A DNA stretch of 64,000 bases, taken from NCBI RefSeq assembly GCF_004208415.1, contig NZ_CP035758.1:6324001-6388000 (forward strand), written 5' to 3'. Every line of letters starts with the position of its first letter. The stretch's first letter is position 1. Source of the DNA: Ktedonosporobacter rubrisoli. GTDB lineage: Bacteria; Chloroflexota; Ktedonobacteria; Ktedonobacterales; Ktedonobacteraceae. Made by a program: the position numbers and the translations under genes. The notes under the pieces are model-generated. The model ran no database searches and was not told the origin of the DNA. It was given only the letters and a program-made list of their open reading frames with translations. Shown here piece by piece: positions 10,062 through 27,905 of this stretch.

Positions 10062-11210
10062 ATGCGTAAGCTCGCGTATATATTCCTGCTGGCTACAGGT
10101 TTTGCCCTTTTCCTTCTGGCCTTCACGCCGCACACATTAGCAGCATCCTGGCGGGCCAGTGTTGGCAACCTGCCCGCCGGCTTTGTGCATAGTCCGGCCG
10201 CAGTTTCCTGGGGCTCAAATCGTACAGATCTCTTTATCGTCGGCAGCGATCATGGCGTATACCATAAATGGTGGAACGGCTCCCGCTGGGCTCCCAGCCT
10301 CACCGGCTACGAAAGCCTGGGCGGCTATGCTATTTCCAGCGCTGCGGCCGTCTCCTGGGGTCCTGGCCGTCTTGATCTTTTCGTCGTTGGCCGCGACCAC
10401 GCCCTCTACCACAAATGGTGGAACGGCTCCCGCTGGCTGCCCAATCTTACCGATTACGAAAATCTCGGCGGGAACATCAGCTCGAATATCGCCGCAGTTT
10501 CCTGGGGCCATAACCGTATCGACCTCTTTGTGATTGGCCTCAATCATGCCCTCTACCACAAATGGTGGGATGGCTCCCGCTGGGCTCCTAGCCTCACTGG
10601 CTATGAAAACCTCGGTGGCTATGCAATCTCAGATCCGTCAGTGGCCTCCTGGGGTCCTGGCCGCCTTGATCTTTTCGTCGTTGGCCGCGACCACGCCCTC
10701 TACCACAAATGGTGGAACGGCTCCCGCTGGGCTCCTAGCCTCACCAGTTATGAAAACCTCGGTGGCTACATAAGCTCAAACGTTGCCACAGTAGCCCAGG
10801 GCAACAATCGCCTCGACACGTTTGTGCTCGGCCGCGACCACGCCCTCTACCACAAATGGTGGGATGGCTCCCGCTGGGCTCCTAGCCTCACCAGTTATGA
10901 ACGCCTGGGCGGCAATTTTATCTCTGACGTCACAGCCATCTCGCGTGCAGCCAACAATCTAGAGATCTGGGCTATTGGCCCGGATCACGCCGTGTATCAC
11001 CAATCGTGGTTGGCCAACCGCTGGCTCAATGGCTTCGAGAATCAGGGCAGCGACGCAATATCAGACGTCACGCCAACTAAATGGGGTCCATCCCACATCG
11101 AGACCTTCGTCGTCGGTCGCGATTACGCCATTCGCCACAAATGGTGGGACGGCCTGAGATGGCGGCCCGCGCCACACACAGATGAGCCTATGGGTGGTTA
11201 TGCCATTTAA
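10062..11210 (+). CDS. secreted seven-repeat beta-propeller lectin-like protein
   Basis: A 382-residue protein with an N-terminal signal peptide (hydrophobic core IFLLATGFALFLLAF, cleavage probably after HTLAA). The rest is seven tandem repeats, mostly 49 residues long, of the pattern WG..R.DLFV.GRDHALYHKWW.GSRW.PSL..YE.LGG. This is the DUF346/PLL-type lectin repeat; characterised PLL lectins of Photorhabdus form seven-bladed propellers that bind fucose or methylated sugars. Repeats 2 to 5 are nearly identical also at DNA level (147-bp period), which points to recent expansion, while repeats 6 and 7 have diverged. Probably an extracellular glycan-binding protein; the ligand is not predictable. 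Confidence 0.85.
   Translation: MRKLAYIFLLATGFALFLLAFTPHTLAASWRASVGNLPAGFVHSPAAVSWGSNRTDLFIVGSDHGVYHKWWNGSRWAPSLTGYESLGGYAISSAAAVSWGPGRLDLFVVGRDHALYHKWWNGSRWLPNLTDYENLGGNISSNIAAVSWGHNRIDLFVIGLNHALYHKWWDGSRWAPSLTGYENLGGYAISDPSVASWGPGRLDLFVVGRDHALYHKWWNGSRWAPSLTSYENLGGYISSNVATVAQGNNRLDTFVLGRDHALYHKWWDGSRWAPSLTSYERLGGNFISDVTAISRAANNLEIWAIGPDHAVYHQSWLANRWLNGFENQGSDAISDVTPTKWGPSHIETFVVGRDYAIRHKWWDGLRWRPAPHTDEPMGGYAI
10207..11207 (+). repeat. 147-bp tandem coding repeats of the propeller lectin
   Basis: Seven tandem units, five with a 147-bp period, each encoding one propeller blade. Units 2 and 4 share long identical stretches, such as the segment beginning GGTCCTGGCCG. The array is therefore prone to recombination and to assembly collapse. 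Confidence 0.8.
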
Positions 11211-11386: not shown

Positions 11387-14300
11387 CTAATCATCAAGCA
11401 GGGGCGTCACCTCATCTGGCGTGAAGATCGAGACCACGTGAGACGCGTGATCAAGCCGCACGCCGAGCGTGCCGGGTCCGATATAGACCAGCCAGCCCGG
11501 ACCACTGCTCGTGCAGACGCGCATCAAATCGCAATAGTAGTCAAGCAGCTCATAGGGCGCGTTTTCATCTATCTCCACATCATAAGGATTGCTCAACAGA
11601 TCATAATCACCTGCCTCGATAAGCGCAGAAATCATATCGGTATCATCATTGATGCGCGTAACAAAGCCCTTTGGCGGCCAGTTTGGATCGCTGTAGCGCT
11701 GCGACTGCCTTTCTAACGGCTCAGAACTTGTCTCCAGCTTTATTGTTACTGCATCCTCCTGCAAGGGTATGGTCTCCTCCCGCTCCACATTCTGTTTGAC
11801 TATCGTAGCCTCCCGCTCGTCTTCAGAAAGTGCCGCAAGGTGCCGGGCAGCCTCTGCAAGCGGCACAGGAGCTAAACCAGCCTGGGAAGCCTCTTCAGCG
11901 CCGTTTTCCTGTTCAGAGAGTGCCGGATCAAAATCGCCACATTCTTGATTTTCGGCAAGGCTTAAATCAGCTTCTAGCGCCATTTCATCCCCATCTACAT
12001 TCCCTATTGGTGCCGGCAGTGCCGGGTTTTGACAAGAAATTGATAAACCCTCAACAGTAGAATCGCCAATTTGACAATCTGAAAAAACTTGCGTATGGAC
12101 GGCACTAACGGCACTGCCATGGCCTGAAACGGCCTGGGAAGCCGTGTCACCCTGAGTGCCGCCAGAGGCAACAGGCGGCACCATTTCTTCTATAGAGTCA
12201 TCAAAGGTATAGCTATCGTCATCAGTATCAAGTGTTGAGCAAGAAGAGAGCTTAATGCCTGAATAATATTTTCCTTTATTATTGCGCTTCCAGGCAAAGC
12301 GCTTGCTCATCTCCTCTTTAAAAAGCCTGCCATTGAGGACGACGAGCTGATTCTCTTTGCCCCACTCTTTATAGGCGTTGTAGAGTTCGCTGGCCCGCAC
12401 CTCCGCATCGGGCCGTACGATACAGCAGTCGCCAATAAAGGCCAGCAGATTATCCTCCTCTTCGCGATAGCGCTCAGTCCACAGCAGGACCGAAGAGGGA
12501 GTATTCAAGCCAACCTGCTGCCAGCGCAGGCAGCCGCGCACCAGCCAGGCCAGAATGCCGCTACGCTCTGCCTTGAGGCGTCCCAACAGCGTGCTATCCT
12601 TCTTGCGCTCATACGTCTCCTTTGGCCGATCGACAAAGCGCATCTTAAAATCTATAAGGCAGGCGCGCTCCCAGAAGGCCTTATCGCGCGCATCGGCTTG
12701 TGGCTTATAGTTGGTCATCAGCAACATAAGATGTGTGGGCTGAAACGAAAACTGCTCGCCGTGGAGCTGACGGGCCGAGATCTCGCTCCCGCCGGTCAGC
12801 CATTTGATCTGGGCCACGTTGAGGCACTCGCCCTGGCGCGTCTCGTTGCCCCAGATTAAGCGCTTGCCCTGTAGATCGCAAAGATGAGGCGTAGGCGCGC
12901 CGCCTGAACGAAAACGGTCGCTACTCGTAAAGACATCGTGACTCACGGCTCCGGCATGCGGTCCTAACACCTCTCTTAGCACGTTGAGCAACGTATCCTT
13001 GCCGTTGCGGCCCTCCTCACCAAACAGAATGGGAAAAACTGCCTCGCAGGTCAGCCCCGTAATGCTATAGCCAAAGAGACGCTGCAGGAAAGCAATTACG
13101 CTCGTGCGATCGGGCTTATCCTCGAAGATCTCCTGCAGGAATTGCTCAAAGCGCGGGCAAGGCGTCTCAAGGCCGGTCCACTTTGTCGGACATACCGTGC
13201 GGATGAAATCCTCGGGCCGTCCAGGGCGCAACTGTCCAGTGCGCAGATCTAGCACGCCCGAAGGCGTGGCCAGCAGCCAGGGATCATGGTCCCAGACGTC
13301 CGAGACAACCCCCAGCTCCGCCTGTACATAGTGCAGCACGCTCATGCTACGGTTGAGTGTACGCAGACCATTGGCGCGCTTCTGCAGGGCCAGCTTCACC
13401 TTTTGCAGCTTATTTACCTGAGATTTCAAGTGAAAGAGTGCAGCGCCTTCCTGCTCATTTTCCTTATAGAAACGGTGCCCCTCTTTGAGCATAATGCGCT
13501 CTTGCAGCCCCTCTTGATGGTCCGAGAGTTGCCGATGGGCATCGAGGTAGATCTCGCCGAGCGCATCCGAGATCAGGACCAGGACTTCGTTGATGCGATC
13601 GCGCTTCCAGTAATGCTCTTCCCAGAAGTACCAGGCCTTCTCTGTGTGATCGTAGCAGAGCTGGTCGCCAAAGGCCGCCACAAAGAGCCTGGCATCGCCT
13701 AACTCGTTTTGCTCAAGATGCTCAAGAACCGTCTTCAGTTCCAGCGGCTTCGCCTGCAAGCGATAGTTGTGCACAAGCCGCTGCGTTCGGTGTTCCAAAA
13801 GTGCCTGCAGTTGCGTCAGCGCCTCAGCCTGGCCCCCTGTCGTCATCTGTGGCTGATACGTCGTTGTACAGTAGGTCAAGGCCATCTGGATCGTCGCTTC
13901 ACCATAGGTTTGTTCGCCGCGCCTGGCATCCCATTTAAGACGATAGAGCGCGCTTGTCCTGAAGATGCGATCTATGCGTTGGGCATCCTTGCCCGTCCAG
14001 AAGGCCAGCAGGATGCACAGGGCCAGATCCGCTTCAGAAGCGGAAATGTAGCCAAACAGGTTGCCATCCTGATAGAGCCGGCGAAACTTCTCGCCATTGG
14101 CTGCGTTGAACGCCTGCTCGATCAGAGATGCATCAGAATCCAGGGTGCGGCAAGAATCATCAGAATCAGGCTGCCCGCCAGTAGGAGCGGCAGGGCGCGT
14201 GGAATTCTGCGCTGGTAGCTGTAGAGCGTCTCGATCATTCCCACCAGGGCGATGATCAAGGCTGACATGGCAAGAATCGAGGCTAGTGCGGCCAGACGGA

Positions 14301-14983
14301 GCAGGAGTAGCGATTCCATCTTGCGGAGTTCCTTTCGTAGTGTGGGAAGCTGGGGAGTTGCGCGGAGGACGTGGAGAGCTCGGTTGCTTAAACTGTTTCA
14401 CTTCATTGAAGAGCGCATCCATAACTTCTTGCTTCCCGTTGATCCCCTCCGGCGTACCTGCCAGGTGCCGACCGGTTATCGTAAAGTAGCGTCCCTGGCT
14501 GTACATCTCGATCGCGGCCTTAGGATGGGAGGGATGCATATGAGGGGGGATGCTGCGGCGCAAGCCGCGCGGAATGGGCAGGCCAATATAGATGTGCAGG
14601 CCTTGGCCGCTTGGCGAGATCTCGGTATAGCTATCGAGCCGCTCGACAATTGCCCGCGCCCAGGGCTCAACCTCGCCTTGCGCATCTATACAGTGGTCAA
14701 GATCGATGCCTGTATAATCGCCCCGGAACATAAAGCCTGTTCCTTCGTAGGGCTGCTCACTGCCCTGTGAGCGCCTGTAGGCATCAAGGGCCTGGGCATA
14801 GCTGGCCCAGGTGCGCGGCTCATTAGAGCGCGCTTCGCGGCCGCTGAGAGCATTAAAGGGGACTTTGGTATATTGGCCGTTGCGCTCGACATAGCGCCAG
14901 ACGACCCATTGTTTACGGGAACACAATTCGTGAAGAGCATGGATGCTTCTAGCCAGTTCACTGAGGGGAGGTAATTCGTCCAC
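11387..14983 (-). CDS. phage/plasmid-type primase-polymerase and SF3 helicase fusion protein
   Basis: A 1198-residue replication protein starting at GTG 14983 after AAAGGAT. The N-terminal part (about 1-200) has primase-polymerase motifs like those of NrS-1 type PrimPols: GIDLDHC with the DxD metal ligands, then SPSGQGLHIYIG with the conserved histidine. A middle helical region (about 290-560) leads into a D5-type superfamily 3 helicase with Walker A GEEGRNGKDT near residue 655 and the following MTNYKP segment. After about residue 900 comes an acidic, low-complexity linker and a conserved-looking C-terminal domain of about 100 residues. Such proteins replicate plasmids, phages and integrative elements, yet no integrase, capsid or mobilisation gene is nearby. 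It could be a relic or a domesticated orphan. Confidence 0.85.
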   Translation of the reverse strand: MDELPPLSELARSIHALHELCSRKQWVVWRYVERNGQYTKVPFNALSGREARSNEPRTWASYAQALDAYRRSQGSEQPYEGTGFMFRGDYTGIDLDHCIDAQGEVEPWARAIVERLDSYTEISPSGQGLHIYIGLPIPRGLRRSIPPHMHPSHPKAAIEMYSQGRYFTITGRHLAGTPEGINGKQEVMDALFNEVKQFKQPSSPRPPRNSPASHTTKGTPQDGIATPAPSGRTSLDSCHVSLDHRPGGNDRDALQLPAQNSTRPAAPTGGQPDSDDSCRTLDSDASLIEQAFNAANGEKFRRLYQDGNLFGYISASEADLALCILLAFWTGKDAQRIDRIFRTSALYRLKWDARRGEQTYGEATIQMALTYCTTTYQPQMTTGGQAEALTQLQALLEHRTQRLVHNYRLQAKPLELKTVLEHLEQNELGDARLFVAAFGDQLCYDHTEKAWYFWEEHYWKRDRINEVLVLISDALGEIYLDAHRQLSDHQEGLQERIMLKEGHRFYKENEQEGAALFHLKSQVNKLQKVKLALQKRANGLRTLNRSMSVLHYVQAELGVVSDVWDHDPWLLATPSGVLDLRTGQLRPGRPEDFIRTVCPTKWTGLETPCPRFEQFLQEIFEDKPDRTSVIAFLQRLFGYSITGLTCEAVFPILFGEEGRNGKDTLLNVLREVLGPHAGAVSHDVFTSSDRFRSGGAPTPHLCDLQGKRLIWGNETRQGECLNVAQIKWLTGGSEISARQLHGEQFSFQPTHLMLLMTNYKPQADARDKAFWERACLIDFKMRFVDRPKETYERKKDSTLLGRLKAERSGILAWLVRGCLRWQQVGLNTPSSVLLWTERYREEEDNLLAFIGDCCIVRPDAEVRASELYNAYKEWGKENQLVVLNGRLFKEEMSKRFAWKRNNKGKYYSGIKLSSCSTLDTDDDSYTFDDSIEEMVPPVASGGTQGDTASQAVSGHGSAVSAVHTQVFSDCQIGDSTVEGLSISCQNPALPAPIGNVDGDEMALEADLSLAENQECGDFDPALSEQENGAEEASQAGLAPVPLAEAARHLAALSEDEREATIVKQNVEREETIPLQEDAVTIKLETSSEPLERQSQRYSDPNWPPKGFVTRINDDTDMISALIEAGDYDLLSNPYDVEIDENAPYELLDYYCDLMRVCTSSGPGWLVYIGPGTLGVRLDHASHVVSIFTPDEVTPLLDD

Positions 14984-15078
14984 AAGAGCTATCCTTTCTG
15001 TGGTAGAGAAGCTAGCTCAAGCCGACCAAAAAAAGGTCAAAGTGTCCCCGTAGCGCACACTTGTGCAACGCTGACCAT

Positions 15079-15107
15079 TTGACAGTTCCCAGAAAAAGTG
15101 CTATAAT
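15079..15107 (+). promoter_or_regulatory. consensus sigma-70-type promoter
   Basis: TTGACA at 15079-15084 and TATAAT at 15102-15107 are separated by exactly 17 bases, which is a perfect match to the housekeeping promoter consensus. It points away from the primase gene and leads into a stretch with no plausible reading frame that ends in a strong terminator. Confidence 0.85.
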
Positions 15108-15113
15108 ATAATA

Positions 15114-15283
15114 GGTTTCTATACAGTTATAGCGCCTTTTGCGGCGAGCTATCTTCTATAACAGTGCCTCGGCAGAGAGGCGGATAATGTTCCCAGAAGC
15201 TGCATTATCCGCGTCTGTTAGAGCACAGGAATCAAAACTGAGACCTCTTAGTAATCAGGGTGTTTTACTAAGAGGTTTTTTTT
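15114..15283 (+). ncRNA. candidate structured small RNA of about 170 nt
   Basis: The unit runs from the start predicted by the consensus promoter to an intrinsic terminator. It contains a perfect 10-bp stem GCGGATAATG/CATTATCCGC (15180-15189 with 15203-15212), a flanking TAACAG/CTGTTA stem (15159-15164 with 15215-15220) and a competing GCCTC/GAGGC hairpin (15166-15170 with 15177-15181). No open frame with a ribosome binding site lies inside. The two competing stems allow a switch, so a regulatory or antisense RNA controlling the adjacent replication gene, or a free-standing small RNA, are both possible. I do not recognise 6S, tmRNA, SRP or RNase P features. Confidence 0.65.
15244..15283 (+). 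terminator. intrinsic terminator of the small RNA
   Basis: CCTCTTAGTAA (15244-15254) pairs perfectly with TTACTAAGAGG (15265-15275) over 11 bp, followed at once by eight T residues (15276-15283). This is as good as an intrinsic terminator gets. Confidence 0.92.
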
Positions 15284-16605
15284 GTGCGTCCGGGCGGCCG
15301 CGGTCCGGTAGAGCAGGCAGGGGCCCTTCTGTACAGCGGCAGGGACGCGCGGCAACACGGATATAACCTGCGCAAAAGAGAGTTGAATTTAACACAATCC
15401 ATGGCCTATTTCTATGACTAAAAACGTAACGCACTACGCTATTTCAGAACAGGCTTGCGCTTATTTCTAGTGCAGGTCCTCCTGGCCAGCAAGCTGATCG
15501 TGGACGCAGGCTCACCCCAGAAATGCAAGCCGGCGATTACTGATCAATCGCTGTAGCAGAAGTAAGATCAAGTCGAGTTGCGGGCAGACATAGTATCCAT
15601 GAGCGCAACTTCCGTCAGTAAAAAAGCCAGAGAAGGAGAGAGGTCTCGCATACTGTTTGCACCTCCTGTGTACAGGTACAAGACTCGTGCCTGAGTGCTC
15701 AGGCAGTGAGGATAAACAACAGACAAAAGAGTAAGGCGTCCCTGCATGCAGGGTATTGAGCGCCAGCGAGCGCACAATGGTGGGCTATGCTAACCACGAT
15801 CCACGTTCGCGCACGCTACCCATCCGGCCCGGCGCTACGGTATGCTTGCCAGGACAGGAGGAGAGCAACCGGCCCCAATAAGCATATGAGCCGTCGATAC
15901 CAGGCGGCGCTCGCTGCCCCGTTGCAGAAGCAAGCAACGCGCACCAGAAGCGTAGGGTGGTCAGCATAGCCCGGGCGGCCGCCGCTGAGCTGACCGCGTG
16001 CGAGAAAGGCCCGGCTGGCATTCTGCTGTTAAAGATGCAGACCCGGCTGACAGCGCCGGACATAGTTGTGGTGCTATGAACCTTGCTCTTGTAACCAGGA
16101 GAACCGGCGAGCAGCGCGAGTCTATAAGTATAGTGTATATCTCTATACAAATGGCGTGCTTAGATACATAAATGCAAAAGACTATTATTCAAGATGTAGA
16201 ATTGCTTGCACAGGCCTGTAGAGCGCACTGATGAGCTTTGCAAGCAAAATACTGCAGGCCATAAAATTGGGCAAAACTGCTCTATTTCGTGATAAAACGT
16301 GATACATTGAAGATTGTTTGCTGATGCTAAGAGAGGCCTGCTGTGCTACTCTATGGGTGGTGGTGATTGCATCCTATTTGGTGCGAATTTGGGGGGAAGA
16401 GTACCGAGGGGCCAGCATCTATCTCTGCGCGTGCATTCTGATGCTGGCCCCTCTTTTCACATTGGCACAGGATTTTACTGCAAATTGCACAGGCTTGACC
16501 GCGCTTGTAACGTACCGATTGTATGTCTCAGTCTCACCGAAGCCCGCTTCTCTTTGCTCAGGGAACTGGCTTCGTTATGCTCTGTGGCTAGCAATAAGCT
16601 GAAGC
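15284..16605. other. gene-poor region downstream of the small RNA
   Basis: About 1.3 kb in which I find no convincing coding region on either strand. The longest frames have atypical composition and no ribosome binding sites. It contains a few short palindromes (for example around 15740, CCTGCATGCAGG). It may be decayed DNA linked to the primase element or the non-coding end of such an element. Confidence 0.5.
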
Positions 16606-17217
16606 TTATTGCTCTTCTTCGGCAACTTCCTCAAGATAGTAGGGATGCCGGCGCGTAGCCAGCCAGCCGCCCCAGCGTCCAAGTAGGCCACCAATCATGC
16701 ACCAGATCAGGAAAAAGACGATGGTCAGCACGATACCACCGGTGAAGGCGCCAGCATTGAGCCCTGGCGCGGTTGAGCTGATATCGCCAGGATAGCCGGG
16801 AATATAGCGCGTAACAAAGCTGCCCAGATAGAGGATAATACCAGCAATGGCCCCACAATAGAAGCTTAGCGTGCGCTGCAGGGTGATCTTGCCAATCACA
16901 AAGCCGGCGATAAAACAGATAGCCAGGCTTATCACAAAATTTAAGCACTGTACGCCAAGAGCCATATAGGCCGTGGTCAGGCTCATAGCTTTGCCCTGGA
17001 CCGCTGCCTCTGTCAGCACTGGATCGTTAAAGAGCGTCAGCGCTACATTGATCAACATTTCGAGGATGCCGGCCACGATGCCACCAATGAGCGCATAGCC
17101 AAAGCCTCTGTTCGGCAAGGTGGTCTCTTCAAGGGGCACGCTCTTGCGCCGCCTGGCCCTTGACGACGATACTTCTGCTTCAAGCTGCTCCGGGTAATGT
17201 TTCTCTGAATCTTGCAT
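16606..17217 (-). CDS. four-TM membrane protein, function unknown
   Basis: A 203-residue protein with a basic N-terminal tail (SSSRARRRKS) and about four transmembrane helices rich in glycine and alanine (GYALIGGIVAGILEMLINVAL; VISLAICFIAGFVIG; FYCGAIAGIILYLGSFV; GGIVLTIVFFLIWCMIGGLLG). The C-terminus is acidic (EEVAEEEQ). It lies just downstream of the signal peptidase gene in the same direction, with only a 22-base gap, so the two are probably one transcription unit. I do not recognise the family. The name membrane protein is as far as the sequence allows. Confidence 0.65.
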   Translation of the reverse strand: MQDSEKHYPEQLEAEVSSSRARRRKSVPLEETTLPNRGFGYALIGGIVAGILEMLINVALTLFNDPVLTEAAVQGKAMSLTTAYMALGVQCLNFVISLAICFIAGFVIGKITLQRTLSFYCGAIAGIILYLGSFVTRYIPGYPGDISSTAPGLNAGAFTGGIVLTIVFFLIWCMIGGLLGRWGGWLATRRHPYYLEEVAEEEQ

Positions 17218-17239: not shown

Positions 17240-17836
17240 TTACTTCTTAATTTGTGCATAAACTGACTGATAGGTATTGATCAACTCCCACGCGCTCACC
17301 GGCCAATAGATTGCCACCGCCTTACCCACGATGTAATCTTTCGGGACAAAACCCCAGTAACGCGAATCGTCACTTTGCAGCCGATTGTCTCCCAGGACAA
17401 AGTACGAACCTGGAGGCACTTTCCATATTTTAGCGAGCGGATTAGTTGGCCCCGTGATATATGGCTCATTCAACTCTGTGCCATTCACCCAGATATGGGT
17501 GTTATCGGTACGAATCGTATCTCCAGGTAAACCTATCACCCGCTTGATGAAATCCTGACTGGTATCCAGGGGATAGTGAAATACTACCACATCTCCACGC
17601 TGAGGCGAGGCCGAGAATATGTAGGCCATCTTATATACCAGCACATATTCATCATTCTGCAGCCCTGGCTGCATACTTACTCCTTCTACGTGATATACCT
17701 GCACTACCAGGCGCACGGCAAAGAAGATGAGCAGGGCCAGTATGACTAACTCTATAAGTTCTCGTACTAATGAAGAACGACGTTTCAACTTACAAACCTT
17801 GCCTGTCTTGCTGTACATCTGCAGTTGGTACAGCAT
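17240..17836 (-). CDS. lepB: signal peptidase I
   Basis: A type I signal peptidase that removes signal peptides on the outer face of the cytoplasmic membrane. It has one N-terminal membrane helix (about residues 27-46). The catalytic serine is S54 in VEGVSMQPGL, and the general base is K98 in FIKRVIGLPGD. The C-terminal box GDNRLQSDDSRYWGFV is also typical (GDNR.S.DSR). The length of 198 residues fits the Gram-positive-type enzymes. The start could be 17836 or the methionine six codons later. It is followed closely by a membrane protein gene. Confidence 0.93.
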   Translation of the reverse strand: MLYQLQMYSKTGKVCKLKRRSSLVRELIELVILALLIFFAVRLVVQVYHVEGVSMQPGLQNDEYVLVYKMAYIFSASPQRGDVVVFHYPLDTSQDFIKRVIGLPGDTIRTDNTHIWVNGTELNEPYITGPTNPLAKIWKVPPGSYFVLGDNRLQSDDSRYWGFVPKDYIVGKAVAIYWPVSAWELINTYQSVYAQIKK

Positions 17837-26100: not shown

Positions 26101-26149
26101 ATTGGCCCGGGACAAGCCTTGCTTTCCAACTTGTCCCGGCTAAGCCAAT
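26101..26149 (-). terminator. terminator hairpin after the AICAR transformylase gene
   Basis: CGGGACAAG (26108-26116) pairs with CTTGTCCCG (26130-26138) over 9 bp, flanked by ATTGGC/GCCAAT (26101-26106 with 26144-26149) that starts at the stop codon. The T-run is weak. Confidence 0.5.
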
Positions 26150-27327
26150 TAGTGATGGAACAGGCGCACGCCATTAAAGACCATGACCATGCCATAGGTA
26201 TCGCAGGCTGCAATGACATCCTCGTCGCGAATAGAGCCACCGGGCTGCACAATGTATGAAACGCCATACTGGGAGGCGAAATCCACGTTATCGCGGAAAG
26301 GAATGTAGGCATCGGAGCCCAGCGAAACGCCCTGCAGACCTGACAGCCAGGCCCGCTTCTCCTCGGCGCTAAGGCGTTGCGGCACCTTCTCAAACAACTG
26401 CTGCCACTCCTGCTCCTCGGCGGCCGTTAGATCGTCGCGCAGGAAGAGATCAATGCCGTTCGTCCGATCGGGTCGCTTCACGCCCTGCTTCCAGGGCAAG
26501 TTCTGTACAGTGGGATGCTGGCGCAAATACCAGTTCGCAGCTTTACCGGCGGCCAGGCGCGTGCAATAGATGCGCGATTGCTGGCCGGCTCCGATCCCGA
26601 TGCACTGGCCATCATAGGTAAAACAGATAGAGTTGGATTGGGTATACTTCAAAGTGATCAGGGCCAGCAAGAGGTCCCGTTTGGCCTCCTCCGGCAAATG
26701 ACGATTCTTCGTTGGGATCTCGCTCAGTTGCTCGGCGCCTGGCACATAATCGTTGCGCTTCTGTTCAAAGGTAACGCCAAAGACCTCGCGCCGCTCGCTT
26801 TCCTGCGGCTGGTAGTCTTGATCGATCTGCAGGACAGTGTATCTGCCCTGGTGCTTCTTGCGCAAAAGCTCCAGCGCTTCCGGTTCATAGCCAGGAGCAA
26901 TAATCCCATCGGAGACCTCGCGGCGTATCAACTGCGCCGTTGGCACATCTACAACATCGCTCAGGGCCACCCAATCGCCAAAGGAAGCCTGACGGTCGGC
27001 GCCGCGCGCGCGGGCATAGGCTGAGGCCAGGGGAGATAATTCCAGGCCATCGACGCCATTGGCCTGTTTCAAGGTCTCGCTCAGCGGCAAGCCCAGGGCT
27101 GCCCCTGCCGGGCTAACGTGCTTAAAAGAGGTCGCGGCGGGCAAATGCAAGACCTGTTTCAGCTCGCGCACTAACTGCCACGAGTTGAGAGCATCCAGCA
27201 GATTAATATAGCCGGGCGCGCCGTTAAGGACCTGAAAGGGCAGGGCACCTCCTGAGCGCATAAAGACTCTCGCCGGCTTCTGATGTGGATTACAGCCATA
27301 ACGCAAGGCAATTTCGTTCTCAGCCAT
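26149..27327 (-). CDS. stand-alone AICAR transformylase (PurH C-terminal-domain type)
   Basis: The protein of 392 residues matches only the transformylase half of PurH; the IMP cyclohydrolase half is missing. It would convert AICAR and 10-formyl-THF to FAICAR in the ninth step of purine synthesis. Diagnostic segments are LRYGCNPHQKPA, SFKHVSPAGAA (catalytic K-H), YTQSNSICFTYDGQCIGIGAGQQSR and SDAYIPFRDNVDFA. Start at ATG 27327, preceded by AAAAAGGAAT; the open frame upstream is the riboswitch leader. A ZTP riboswitch lies directly upstream, which fits because its substrate AICAR (ZMP) is what this switch senses. The cyclohydrolase must be encoded elsewhere. Confidence 0.9.
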   Translation of the reverse strand: MAENEIALRYGCNPHQKPARVFMRSGGALPFQVLNGAPGYINLLDALNSWQLVRELKQVLHLPAATSFKHVSPAGAALGLPLSETLKQANGVDGLELSPLASAYARARGADRQASFGDWVALSDVVDVPTAQLIRREVSDGIIAPGYEPEALELLRKKHQGRYTVLQIDQDYQPQESERREVFGVTFEQKRNDYVPGAEQLSEIPTKNRHLPEEAKRDLLLALITLKYTQSNSICFTYDGQCIGIGAGQQSRIYCTRLAAGKAANWYLRQHPTVQNLPWKQGVKRPDRTNGIDLFLRDDLTAAEEQEWQQLFEKVPQRLSAEEKRAWLSGLQGVSLGSDAYIPFRDNVDFASQYGVSYIVQPGGSIRDEDVIAACDTYGMVMVFNGVRLFHH

Positions 27328-27467
27328 CTGTATTCCTTTTTGGATATGAGCAAAGCCAGCCCCTCGACACAGGGCCGGAGCAAGCAGTACGCTTGCGCTT
27401 GTAAAGTTGTGAATATGCACCAGGAAAAGTTCTTTCATCCCCGGCGCTCCGTCAGTTGTTTCCACAC

Positions 27468-27590
27468 AAAAAAGGGCCACGAGACGTATAGTAAGCATAA
27501 CGTCTGTGTCCCAGCCCAGGCGAGCGGCTCTAGCATCTTACCTCCTGGCTTCCCTGTGGTGCTCCACATAGATCGCCAGTTACCAGGAGG
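27468..27590 (-). promoter_or_regulatory. ZTP (pfl) riboswitch with terminator platform
   Basis: Read on the minus strand, P1 is CCTCCTGG/CCAGGAGG (27583-27590 with 27541-27548). It encloses the conserved AACTGGCGA, a P2 hairpin TGTGG-AGCA-CCACA and GGGAAG. After a short linker comes GCCGCTCGCCTGGGC, the P3/pseudoknot element. This order and these bases match the ZTP-sensing pfl consensus. The expression platform follows: GGGACACAGACG (27501-27512) pairs with CGTCTCGTGGCCC (27474-27486) and is followed by six T residues (27468-27473). The terminator abuts P3, so ligand binding should prevent it and switch the AICAR transformylase gene on when ZMP/ZTP builds up. Confidence 0.88.
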
Positions 27591-27905
27591 ATTTTTTCAA
27601 TTGTCAAATCTCTCCAGCAGCCAGCACAGCGCTTTACAGTTTAAGCCAGGCTGGAACTGCCAGAAGATGGAAAGAAGTTTCTCTCTAAAGTCTAGCACAT
27701 TGCGCCAGAAATGGGCAACCAGGCTGACGAATTGCATATACATGTGTTATTATGTTTCATATGCATCTTTTACGGCACCTATGAACATAGCTCGGCTCTT
27801 GATCTTGACTGCCGTTTTGGCCAATAAATAGGAAAAATCCAGGCAAGCGGAGCGCCGAGAGCCCGGCCGGTCTCCACGCCAGTTTACGCGCAACAAGGAG
27901 GTTTC
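27591..27905. other. divergent promoter region
   Basis: About 315 bases between the riboswitch and the TPR gene, with no gene. On the minus strand TTGCCC and TAGACT spaced by 18 (around 27690-27720) are a possible promoter for the riboswitch transcript. AACAAGGAGG at 27891-27900 is the ribosome site of the plus-strand TPR gene. Confidence 0.35.

What the first reader, a model, noticed from the sequence alone, without database searches (positions are those of the whole stretch)
15079..15283. Candidate 170-nt small RNA beside an orphan primase gene
A perfect TTGACA-N17-TATAAT promoter leads into a non-coding unit with two competing hairpins and ends in an 11-bp, eight-T terminator. It lies about 100 bases from the start of a phage/plasmid-type primase-helicase, facing away. 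A free-standing structured RNA that regulates replication or stress is a real option.
Basis: partly seen in the sequence, partly recalled or inferred. Interest (0 to 1): 0.7.

Follow-up and report, generated by a model that had tools for sequence, protein, structure and literature searches.

The report
Lone small-RNA gene beside a primase
A short stretch of DNA carries all the signals of a free-standing small RNA gene (a textbook-perfect start signal, a stable fold and a strong stop signal) next to a virus-type DNA-copying gene, but it was found in this one genome only, so its function is still a guess.

Summary
15079-15107 is a perfect TTGACA-N17-TATAAT promoter with an extended -10; it is one of 28 in an 11.34-Mb genome and the only one of these with the TG-n motif. 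It leads into a ~170-nt unit without a credible ORF. The unit folds far better than shuffles (z = -5.3; -3.35 without the terminator) and ends in the only perfect long-stem, T8 terminator of the 64-kb window.

No relative was found: no Rfam match; no DNA match in about 100 relatives, phages or plasmids; no covariance-model match in 47 genomes of the order. The closest primase homologues (47-54% identity) have no such unit upstream. Covariation is therefore untestable. The unit and the primase are absent beside the conserved right-hand gene block in six relatives, so they are lineage-specific.

Best reading: an orphan, intrinsically terminated sRNA, perhaps acquired with the mobile-element-type primase. 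A weakly supported link: an 18-nt sRNA segment matches (15/18) the arm of a leader hairpin that masks the primase Shine-Dalgarno, and could pair 8 bp with that site. Chance is about 1% per orientation, found after the fact; the accessibility-corrected pairing energy is no better than chance. Replication or stress control is unproven.

The parts
15079..15107 (+). Perfect sigma-70 type promoter TTGACA-N17-TATAAT with extended -10 (TGC)
   Evidence: 28 perfect copies in the genome vs 2 for the reversed control; the only one with TG-n
15114..15283 (+). Predicted ~170-nt non-coding transcript
   Evidence: promoter and terminator positions; fold z -5.26; the only long ORF in it (TTG 15139-15366) runs through the terminator
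15114..15233 (+). Core fold: 7-bp closing stem GGTTTCT/AGGAATC joining 5' and 3' ends around two hairpins
   Evidence: minimum-energy structure; no covariation evidence
15126..15162 (+). Hairpin 1 (GTTATAG...CTATAAC) with an unpaired internal-loop segment GAGCTATCTT
   Evidence: unpaired probabilities
15164..15226 (+). Hairpin 2, long imperfect stem with a perfect 10-11-bp tip stem GCGGATAATG/CATTATCCGC
15146..15163 (+). Segment GAGCTATCTTCTATAACA, 15/18 identical to the anti-Shine-Dalgarno arm of the primase leader
   Evidence: 5 of 400 shuffles as good; 0.8% of 1,332 control tiles as good
15243..15283 (+). Intrinsic terminator, 11-12 bp stem, 10-nt loop, T8
15097..15136 (.). Imperfect nested dyad over the -10 and start site (GTGCTATAAT-ATA-ATAG-GTTT-CTAT-ACA-GTTATAGCGC): possible repressor operator, or a weak minus-strand terminator-like hairpin
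   Evidence: dyad p about 0.05; 11 of 28 perfect promoters in this genome have dyads with p < 0.05; single copy in the genome
14981..15018 (-). Primase translation start: leader hairpin GAGCTA...TAGCTC enclosing Shine-Dalgarno AAAGGA (14992-14997), and GTG start (14983)
   Evidence: fold
11387..14983 (-). Primase-helicase, 1198 aa: NrS-1-polymerase HBD, D5_N, DUF5906, Pox_D5 domains; TIGR01613 phage/plasmid P4-type primase

Best explanation
It is an orphan gene for an intrinsically terminated small RNA of about 170 nt. Transcription starts near 15114 from an exceptionally strong promoter and stops at the T8 terminator at 15283. The RNA folds into a compact form: its ends pair and two hairpins project, which would make it stable. 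The gene and the adjacent phage/plasmid-type primase form a lineage-specific segment beside a conserved operon. Shown: the signals, the fold statistics, the absence of relatives. Inferred: that it is transcribed, and that it acts as a regulator. The most likely specific action, held at low confidence (about 0.2), is to keep the neighbouring primase off. The exposed GAGCUAUCUU segment would pair with GAUAGCUC and the AAGGA Shine-Dalgarno of the divergent primase mRNA, doing in trans what the primase leader hairpin does in cis. The promoter dyad suggests that a repressor tunes the amount of RNA.
For: Perfect extended promoter, unique among the 28 perfect ones in the genome for TG-n. Terminator unique in the window. 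Fold z -5.26 full and -3.35 core. No credible ORF. No gene for 1.3 kb downstream, so it is not a leader of an existing gene. Segment absent beside the conserved right-hand genes in six relatives. For the primase link: 15/18 match to the SD-masking leader arm, 5 of 400 shuffles and 0.8% of control tiles as good, and the leader hairpin itself.
Against: No homologue anywhere searched, hence no covariation and no purifying-selection evidence. No expression data. The accessibility-corrected sRNA-primase interaction ranks 11 of 29 genes, and 53 of 120 shuffled sRNAs do as well. The similarity was found after the fact and in two orientations. Primase homologues have no such unit upstream.
Confidence: 0.72

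Rival explanations
1. A leftover leader or attenuator: the RNA was the regulated 5' leader of a gene since lost or displaced, and now only makes a short terminated transcript.
For: Promoter, structured region and terminator is the layout of an attenuator; weak sub-threshold Rfam similarities are to leaders of that layout (trpB motif 23.8 bits vs cutoff 59; PyrR site 22.5 vs 54); 1.3 kb of gene-free DNA follows.
Against: No trace of a protein in the 1.3 kb by Pfam in six frames. Nascent folding shows no antiterminator able to compete with the 11-12 bp terminator stem. The Rfam scores are far below threshold.
Confidence: 0.13
2. A DNA-level element: the dyads between the primase and the terminator form an origin or operator region for the mobile element, and the transcript is incidental or a replication primer.
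For: Several dyads lie in about 280 bp next to a replication primase: GACC-A7-GGTC at 15024-15038, GCACA-CT-TGTGC at 15055-15066, and the promoter dyad. The minus strand folds about as well as the plus strand (z -5.5), as expected if structure is a DNA property.
Against: The asymmetric signals (directional promoter and T8 terminator on the plus strand only) fit a transcript. No iterons or direct repeats flank it. Other perfect promoters in the genome carry dyads that look like ordinary operators.
Confidence: 0.1
3. A chance assembly or a dead gene: the signals are real sequence but nothing is made, or the RNA is transcriptional noise without function.
For: No conservation anywhere searched; lineage-specific segment.
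Against: Perfect promoter, unique terminator and extreme fold coincide in order and spacing; each is rare. A decayed gene would be expected to lose these first.
Confidence: 0.12
4. A lineage-specific global regulator of the 6S or RNA-polymerase-decoy type, not related to the primase.
For: Size (~170 nt), paired 5' and 3' ends, very strong promoter; RF00013 finds no 6S RNA in this genome or 40 relatives, so the slot is formally empty.
Against: The fold is a branched two-hairpin form, not a single long helix with a central bubble. A 6S RNA would be expected in relatives, but the covariance model finds nothing in the order. No 6S match in Rfam even at E 10.
Confidence: 0.04

Closest known systems
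Intrinsically terminated intergenic bacterial sRNAs (general class, trans-acting, often pairing at Shine-Dalgarno sites)
   Same: Own sigma-70 promoter, ~170 nt, structured, Rho-independent terminator, non-coding, exposed segment complementary to a Shine-Dalgarno
   Different: No homologue, no shown expression, chaperone or target; single-genome distribution
Phage P4 CI immunity RNA (controls the P4 alpha primase operon)
   Same: Small structured RNA next to a P4-type primase gene
   Different: From established knowledge, CI RNA comes from the primase operon leader on the same strand; this RNA is transcribed away from the primase from its own promoter and ends at its own terminator
Plasmid counter-transcribed RNAs (RNAI, CopA, ctRNA)
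   Same: Strong constitutive-type promoter, compact hairpins, terminator, near a replication gene
   Different: Those overlap their target on the opposite strand; here the predicted RNA starts about 130 bp upstream of the primase start and diverges, so overlap needs a primase transcript starting beyond 15114, for which no promoter was found
6S RNA (RF00013)
   Same: Length and paired ends
   Different: No match, wrong architecture, not conserved in relatives

Membership tests
Intrinsically terminated bacterial sRNA | Own promoter directly upstream of the transcribed unit | tested here: met
Intrinsically terminated bacterial sRNA | Rho-independent terminator at the end | tested here: met
Intrinsically terminated bacterial sRNA | No protein-coding frame | tested here: met
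   the only frame of length (TTG 15139, no Shine-Dalgarno evident) crosses the terminator
Intrinsically terminated bacterial sRNA | A discrete transcript is made | not testable with these tools
   no RNA-seq or northern data
Intrinsically terminated bacterial sRNA | Conserved structure or sequence in relatives (supporting, not strictly defining) | tested here: not met
   common for young sRNAs, so it lowers certainty of function rather than excluding the class
Phage P4 CI-type RNA | Derived from the leader of the primase operon, same strand | tested here: not met
   opposite strand, own promoter
Counter-transcribed antisense RNA | Overlaps the target mRNA on the opposite strand | tested here: inconclusive
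   no primase promoter found on the minus strand in 14900-15450 at the scan's threshold; overlap only if the primase transcript starts beyond 15114
6S RNA | Match to the RF00013 model | tested here: not met
   (no match at E 10)
Riboswitch or attenuator leader | Regulated gene directly downstream on the same strand | tested here: not met
   no gene for 1.3 kb, and the next gene is on the opposite strand
Retron msr-msd RNA | Adjacent reverse transcriptase | tested here: not met
   adjacent genes are a primase and an unassigned 203-aa protein

The most novel reading that the evidence does not exclude
A trans-acting small RNA that copies the anti-Shine-Dalgarno arm of the neighbouring primase-polymerase leader. 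It would silence the replication enzyme of a mobile element by standing in for the cis hairpin: a self-limiting switch for a chromosomally resident NrS-1/P4-type replicon, in a lineage for which no sRNA study was found in the papers searched.
Probability: 0.15. Interest if true: 0.55.

Novelty: new member of a known kind. Interest (0 to 1): 0.33.

Why it matters
If transcribed, it would be a very strongly promoted sRNA gene in a group of large-genome bacteria for which the literature searches here turned up no sRNA study. It would also offer a simple test of whether orphan mobile-element primases are kept silent by RNA. If it is only an orphan sRNA of unknown target, it is one of many.

Tried and rejected
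Rfam at gathering and permissive thresholds: nothing above threshold at the site. DNA search in own genome, 101 genomes (own plus relatives), all 47 held genomes of the order, phages and plasmids: no real match; the short hits are chance-level. Single-sequence covariance model over the order: only itself. Hairpin-2 pattern over 84,980 genomes: 2 matches in unrelated Firmicutes, about the number expected by chance. Hairpin and promoter-dyad patterns over viral contigs: none. Primase relatives by peptide patterns in genome and viral contigs: none confirmed. Primase relatives by whole-genome search exist, but their upstream regions hold small genes or coding sequence, not a similar unit. 6S RNA: rejected. 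Attenuator of an existing gene: rejected, no gene downstream. Decayed gene in 15284-16605: no Pfam match in six frames. Integration site by direct repeats or tRNA: none found. sRNA-primase pairing with opening energies: not better than chance. Antisense identity to the primase leader: 8 nt, chance level. Literature on sRNAs in the presumed group: nothing relevant.

Full report
OBSERVATION. The sequence at 15079-15283 is as described. The promoter is a 12-of-12 match with a 17-bp spacer and an extended -10. Exact TTGACA-N17-TATAAT occurs 28 times in the 11.34-Mb genome, against 2 for the reversed control pattern. The other 27 mostly sit before coding genes (several regulators among them, judged by eye) or tRNAs, so such sites are likely real promoters in this organism. 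Only the present one combines the perfect hexamers with TG-n. The terminator (11-12 bp, T8) is the only perfect stem of at least 9 bp followed by T7 or more in the window, against 0.05 expected by shuffling. The predicted RNA has MFE -62.7 kcal/mol, z -5.26 (15112-15285). Without the terminator the core still has z -3.35 and lies in the lowest 0.3% of same-length tiles after GC correction.

ANATOMY. The 5' and 3' parts of the core pair (GGUUUCU/AGGAAUC) and enclose hairpin 1 and hairpin 2. Step-wise folding of growing 3' ends shows that both hairpins form without competing and do not interfere with the terminator. The 'competing' dyad includes the -10 and start site; its left arm is upstream of the predicted start. 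Eleven of 28 perfect promoters in this genome have a dyad with p < 0.05 (1.4 expected), as for repressor-controlled genes; here p is about 0.05. The dyad has no second copy in the genome: the one other pattern hit has unrelated inner sequence.

SURROUNDINGS. The divergent gene (GTG 14983) encodes a 1198-aa primase-helicase with NrS-1 polymerase HBD, D5_N, DUF5906 and Pox_D5 domains and a TIGR01613 match, a kind carried by phages and mobile elements. No integrase, tRNA or flanking repeat was found close by. To the right, 15284-16605 has no gene or Pfam trace. Beyond it lie genes at 16606-17217 and 17240-17836 (signal peptidase I), which stay together in six relatives; in two of these the 19188-21008 gene is there too. 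The primase does not match in any of the six regions. The primase/RNA segment is thus lineage-specific. Homologous primases at 47-54% identity exist in four relatives, but their upstream DNA holds no similar unit.

RELATIVES. None: Rfam, own genome, 101 genomes, order, covariance model over the order, phages and plasmids, 84,980-species pattern scan (two chance-level hits). No other genome of the same genus appeared among the relatives held, so close relatives, the only place where covariation could be seen, could not be examined.

FUNCTION. The absence of a downstream gene argues against a riboswitch or attenuator. The architecture and the lack of relatives argue against 6S RNA (one search shows none detectable in 41 genomes, which is an RF00013 limit as much as a biological fact). 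For the primase, the leader is predicted to fold into a hairpin that encloses the Shine-Dalgarno. The 5' arm of that hairpin (GAGCUAGCUUCUCUACCA) is 15/18 identical to the sRNA segment 15146-15163 (GAGCUAUCUUCUAUAACA), much of which is unpaired in the predicted fold. Five of 400 leader shuffles and 0.8% of 1,332 control tiles reach this score. The sRNA segment would pair perfectly over 8 bp with GAUAGCUC next to the Shine-Dalgarno. However, an interaction energy that charges both RNAs for unfolding ranks the primase only 11th of 29 genes, and 53 of 120 shuffled sRNAs do as well. I therefore hold the primase-silencing model at about 0.2 within the sRNA reading.

VERDICT. Regulation of replication is a specific, testable but weak hypothesis, and stress regulation has no evidence. 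It is a new member of a known kind. The host group (Ktedonobacteria-like Chloroflexota) is my inference from memory of genome size and gene content and was not tested.

Noticed in passing
27507-27593 (-): ZMP/ZTP riboswitch aptamer (RF01750, 65.3 bits), directly upstream of the 449-aa gene at 26149-27498.
   Followed up: no
G000 and 40 relatives: No 6S RNA detectable with RF00013, although the same search rings in 5 of 14 control genomes; 6S RNA in this group is either very diverged or missing.
   Followed up: partly
L031-L058 (28 perfect promoters): Perfect consensus promoters in this genome number 28 against 2 for the reversed control, and often overlap inverted repeats (11 of 28 at p < 0.05): a possible handle for finding repressor-controlled genes.
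   Followed up: partly
10062-11210 (+): Protein made of 49-aa repeats (147-nt units; DUF346, PF03984) beside the primase.
   Followed up: no
15024-15066: Two further small inverted repeats (GACC-A7-GGTC at 15024-15038 and GCACA-CT-TGTGC at 15055-15066) in the primase upstream region: possible operators or origin features.
   Followed up: no
15085-15094 and 15189-15198: GTTCCCAGAA occurs both in the promoter spacer and in the loop region of hairpin 2, 104 bases apart.
   Followed up: no
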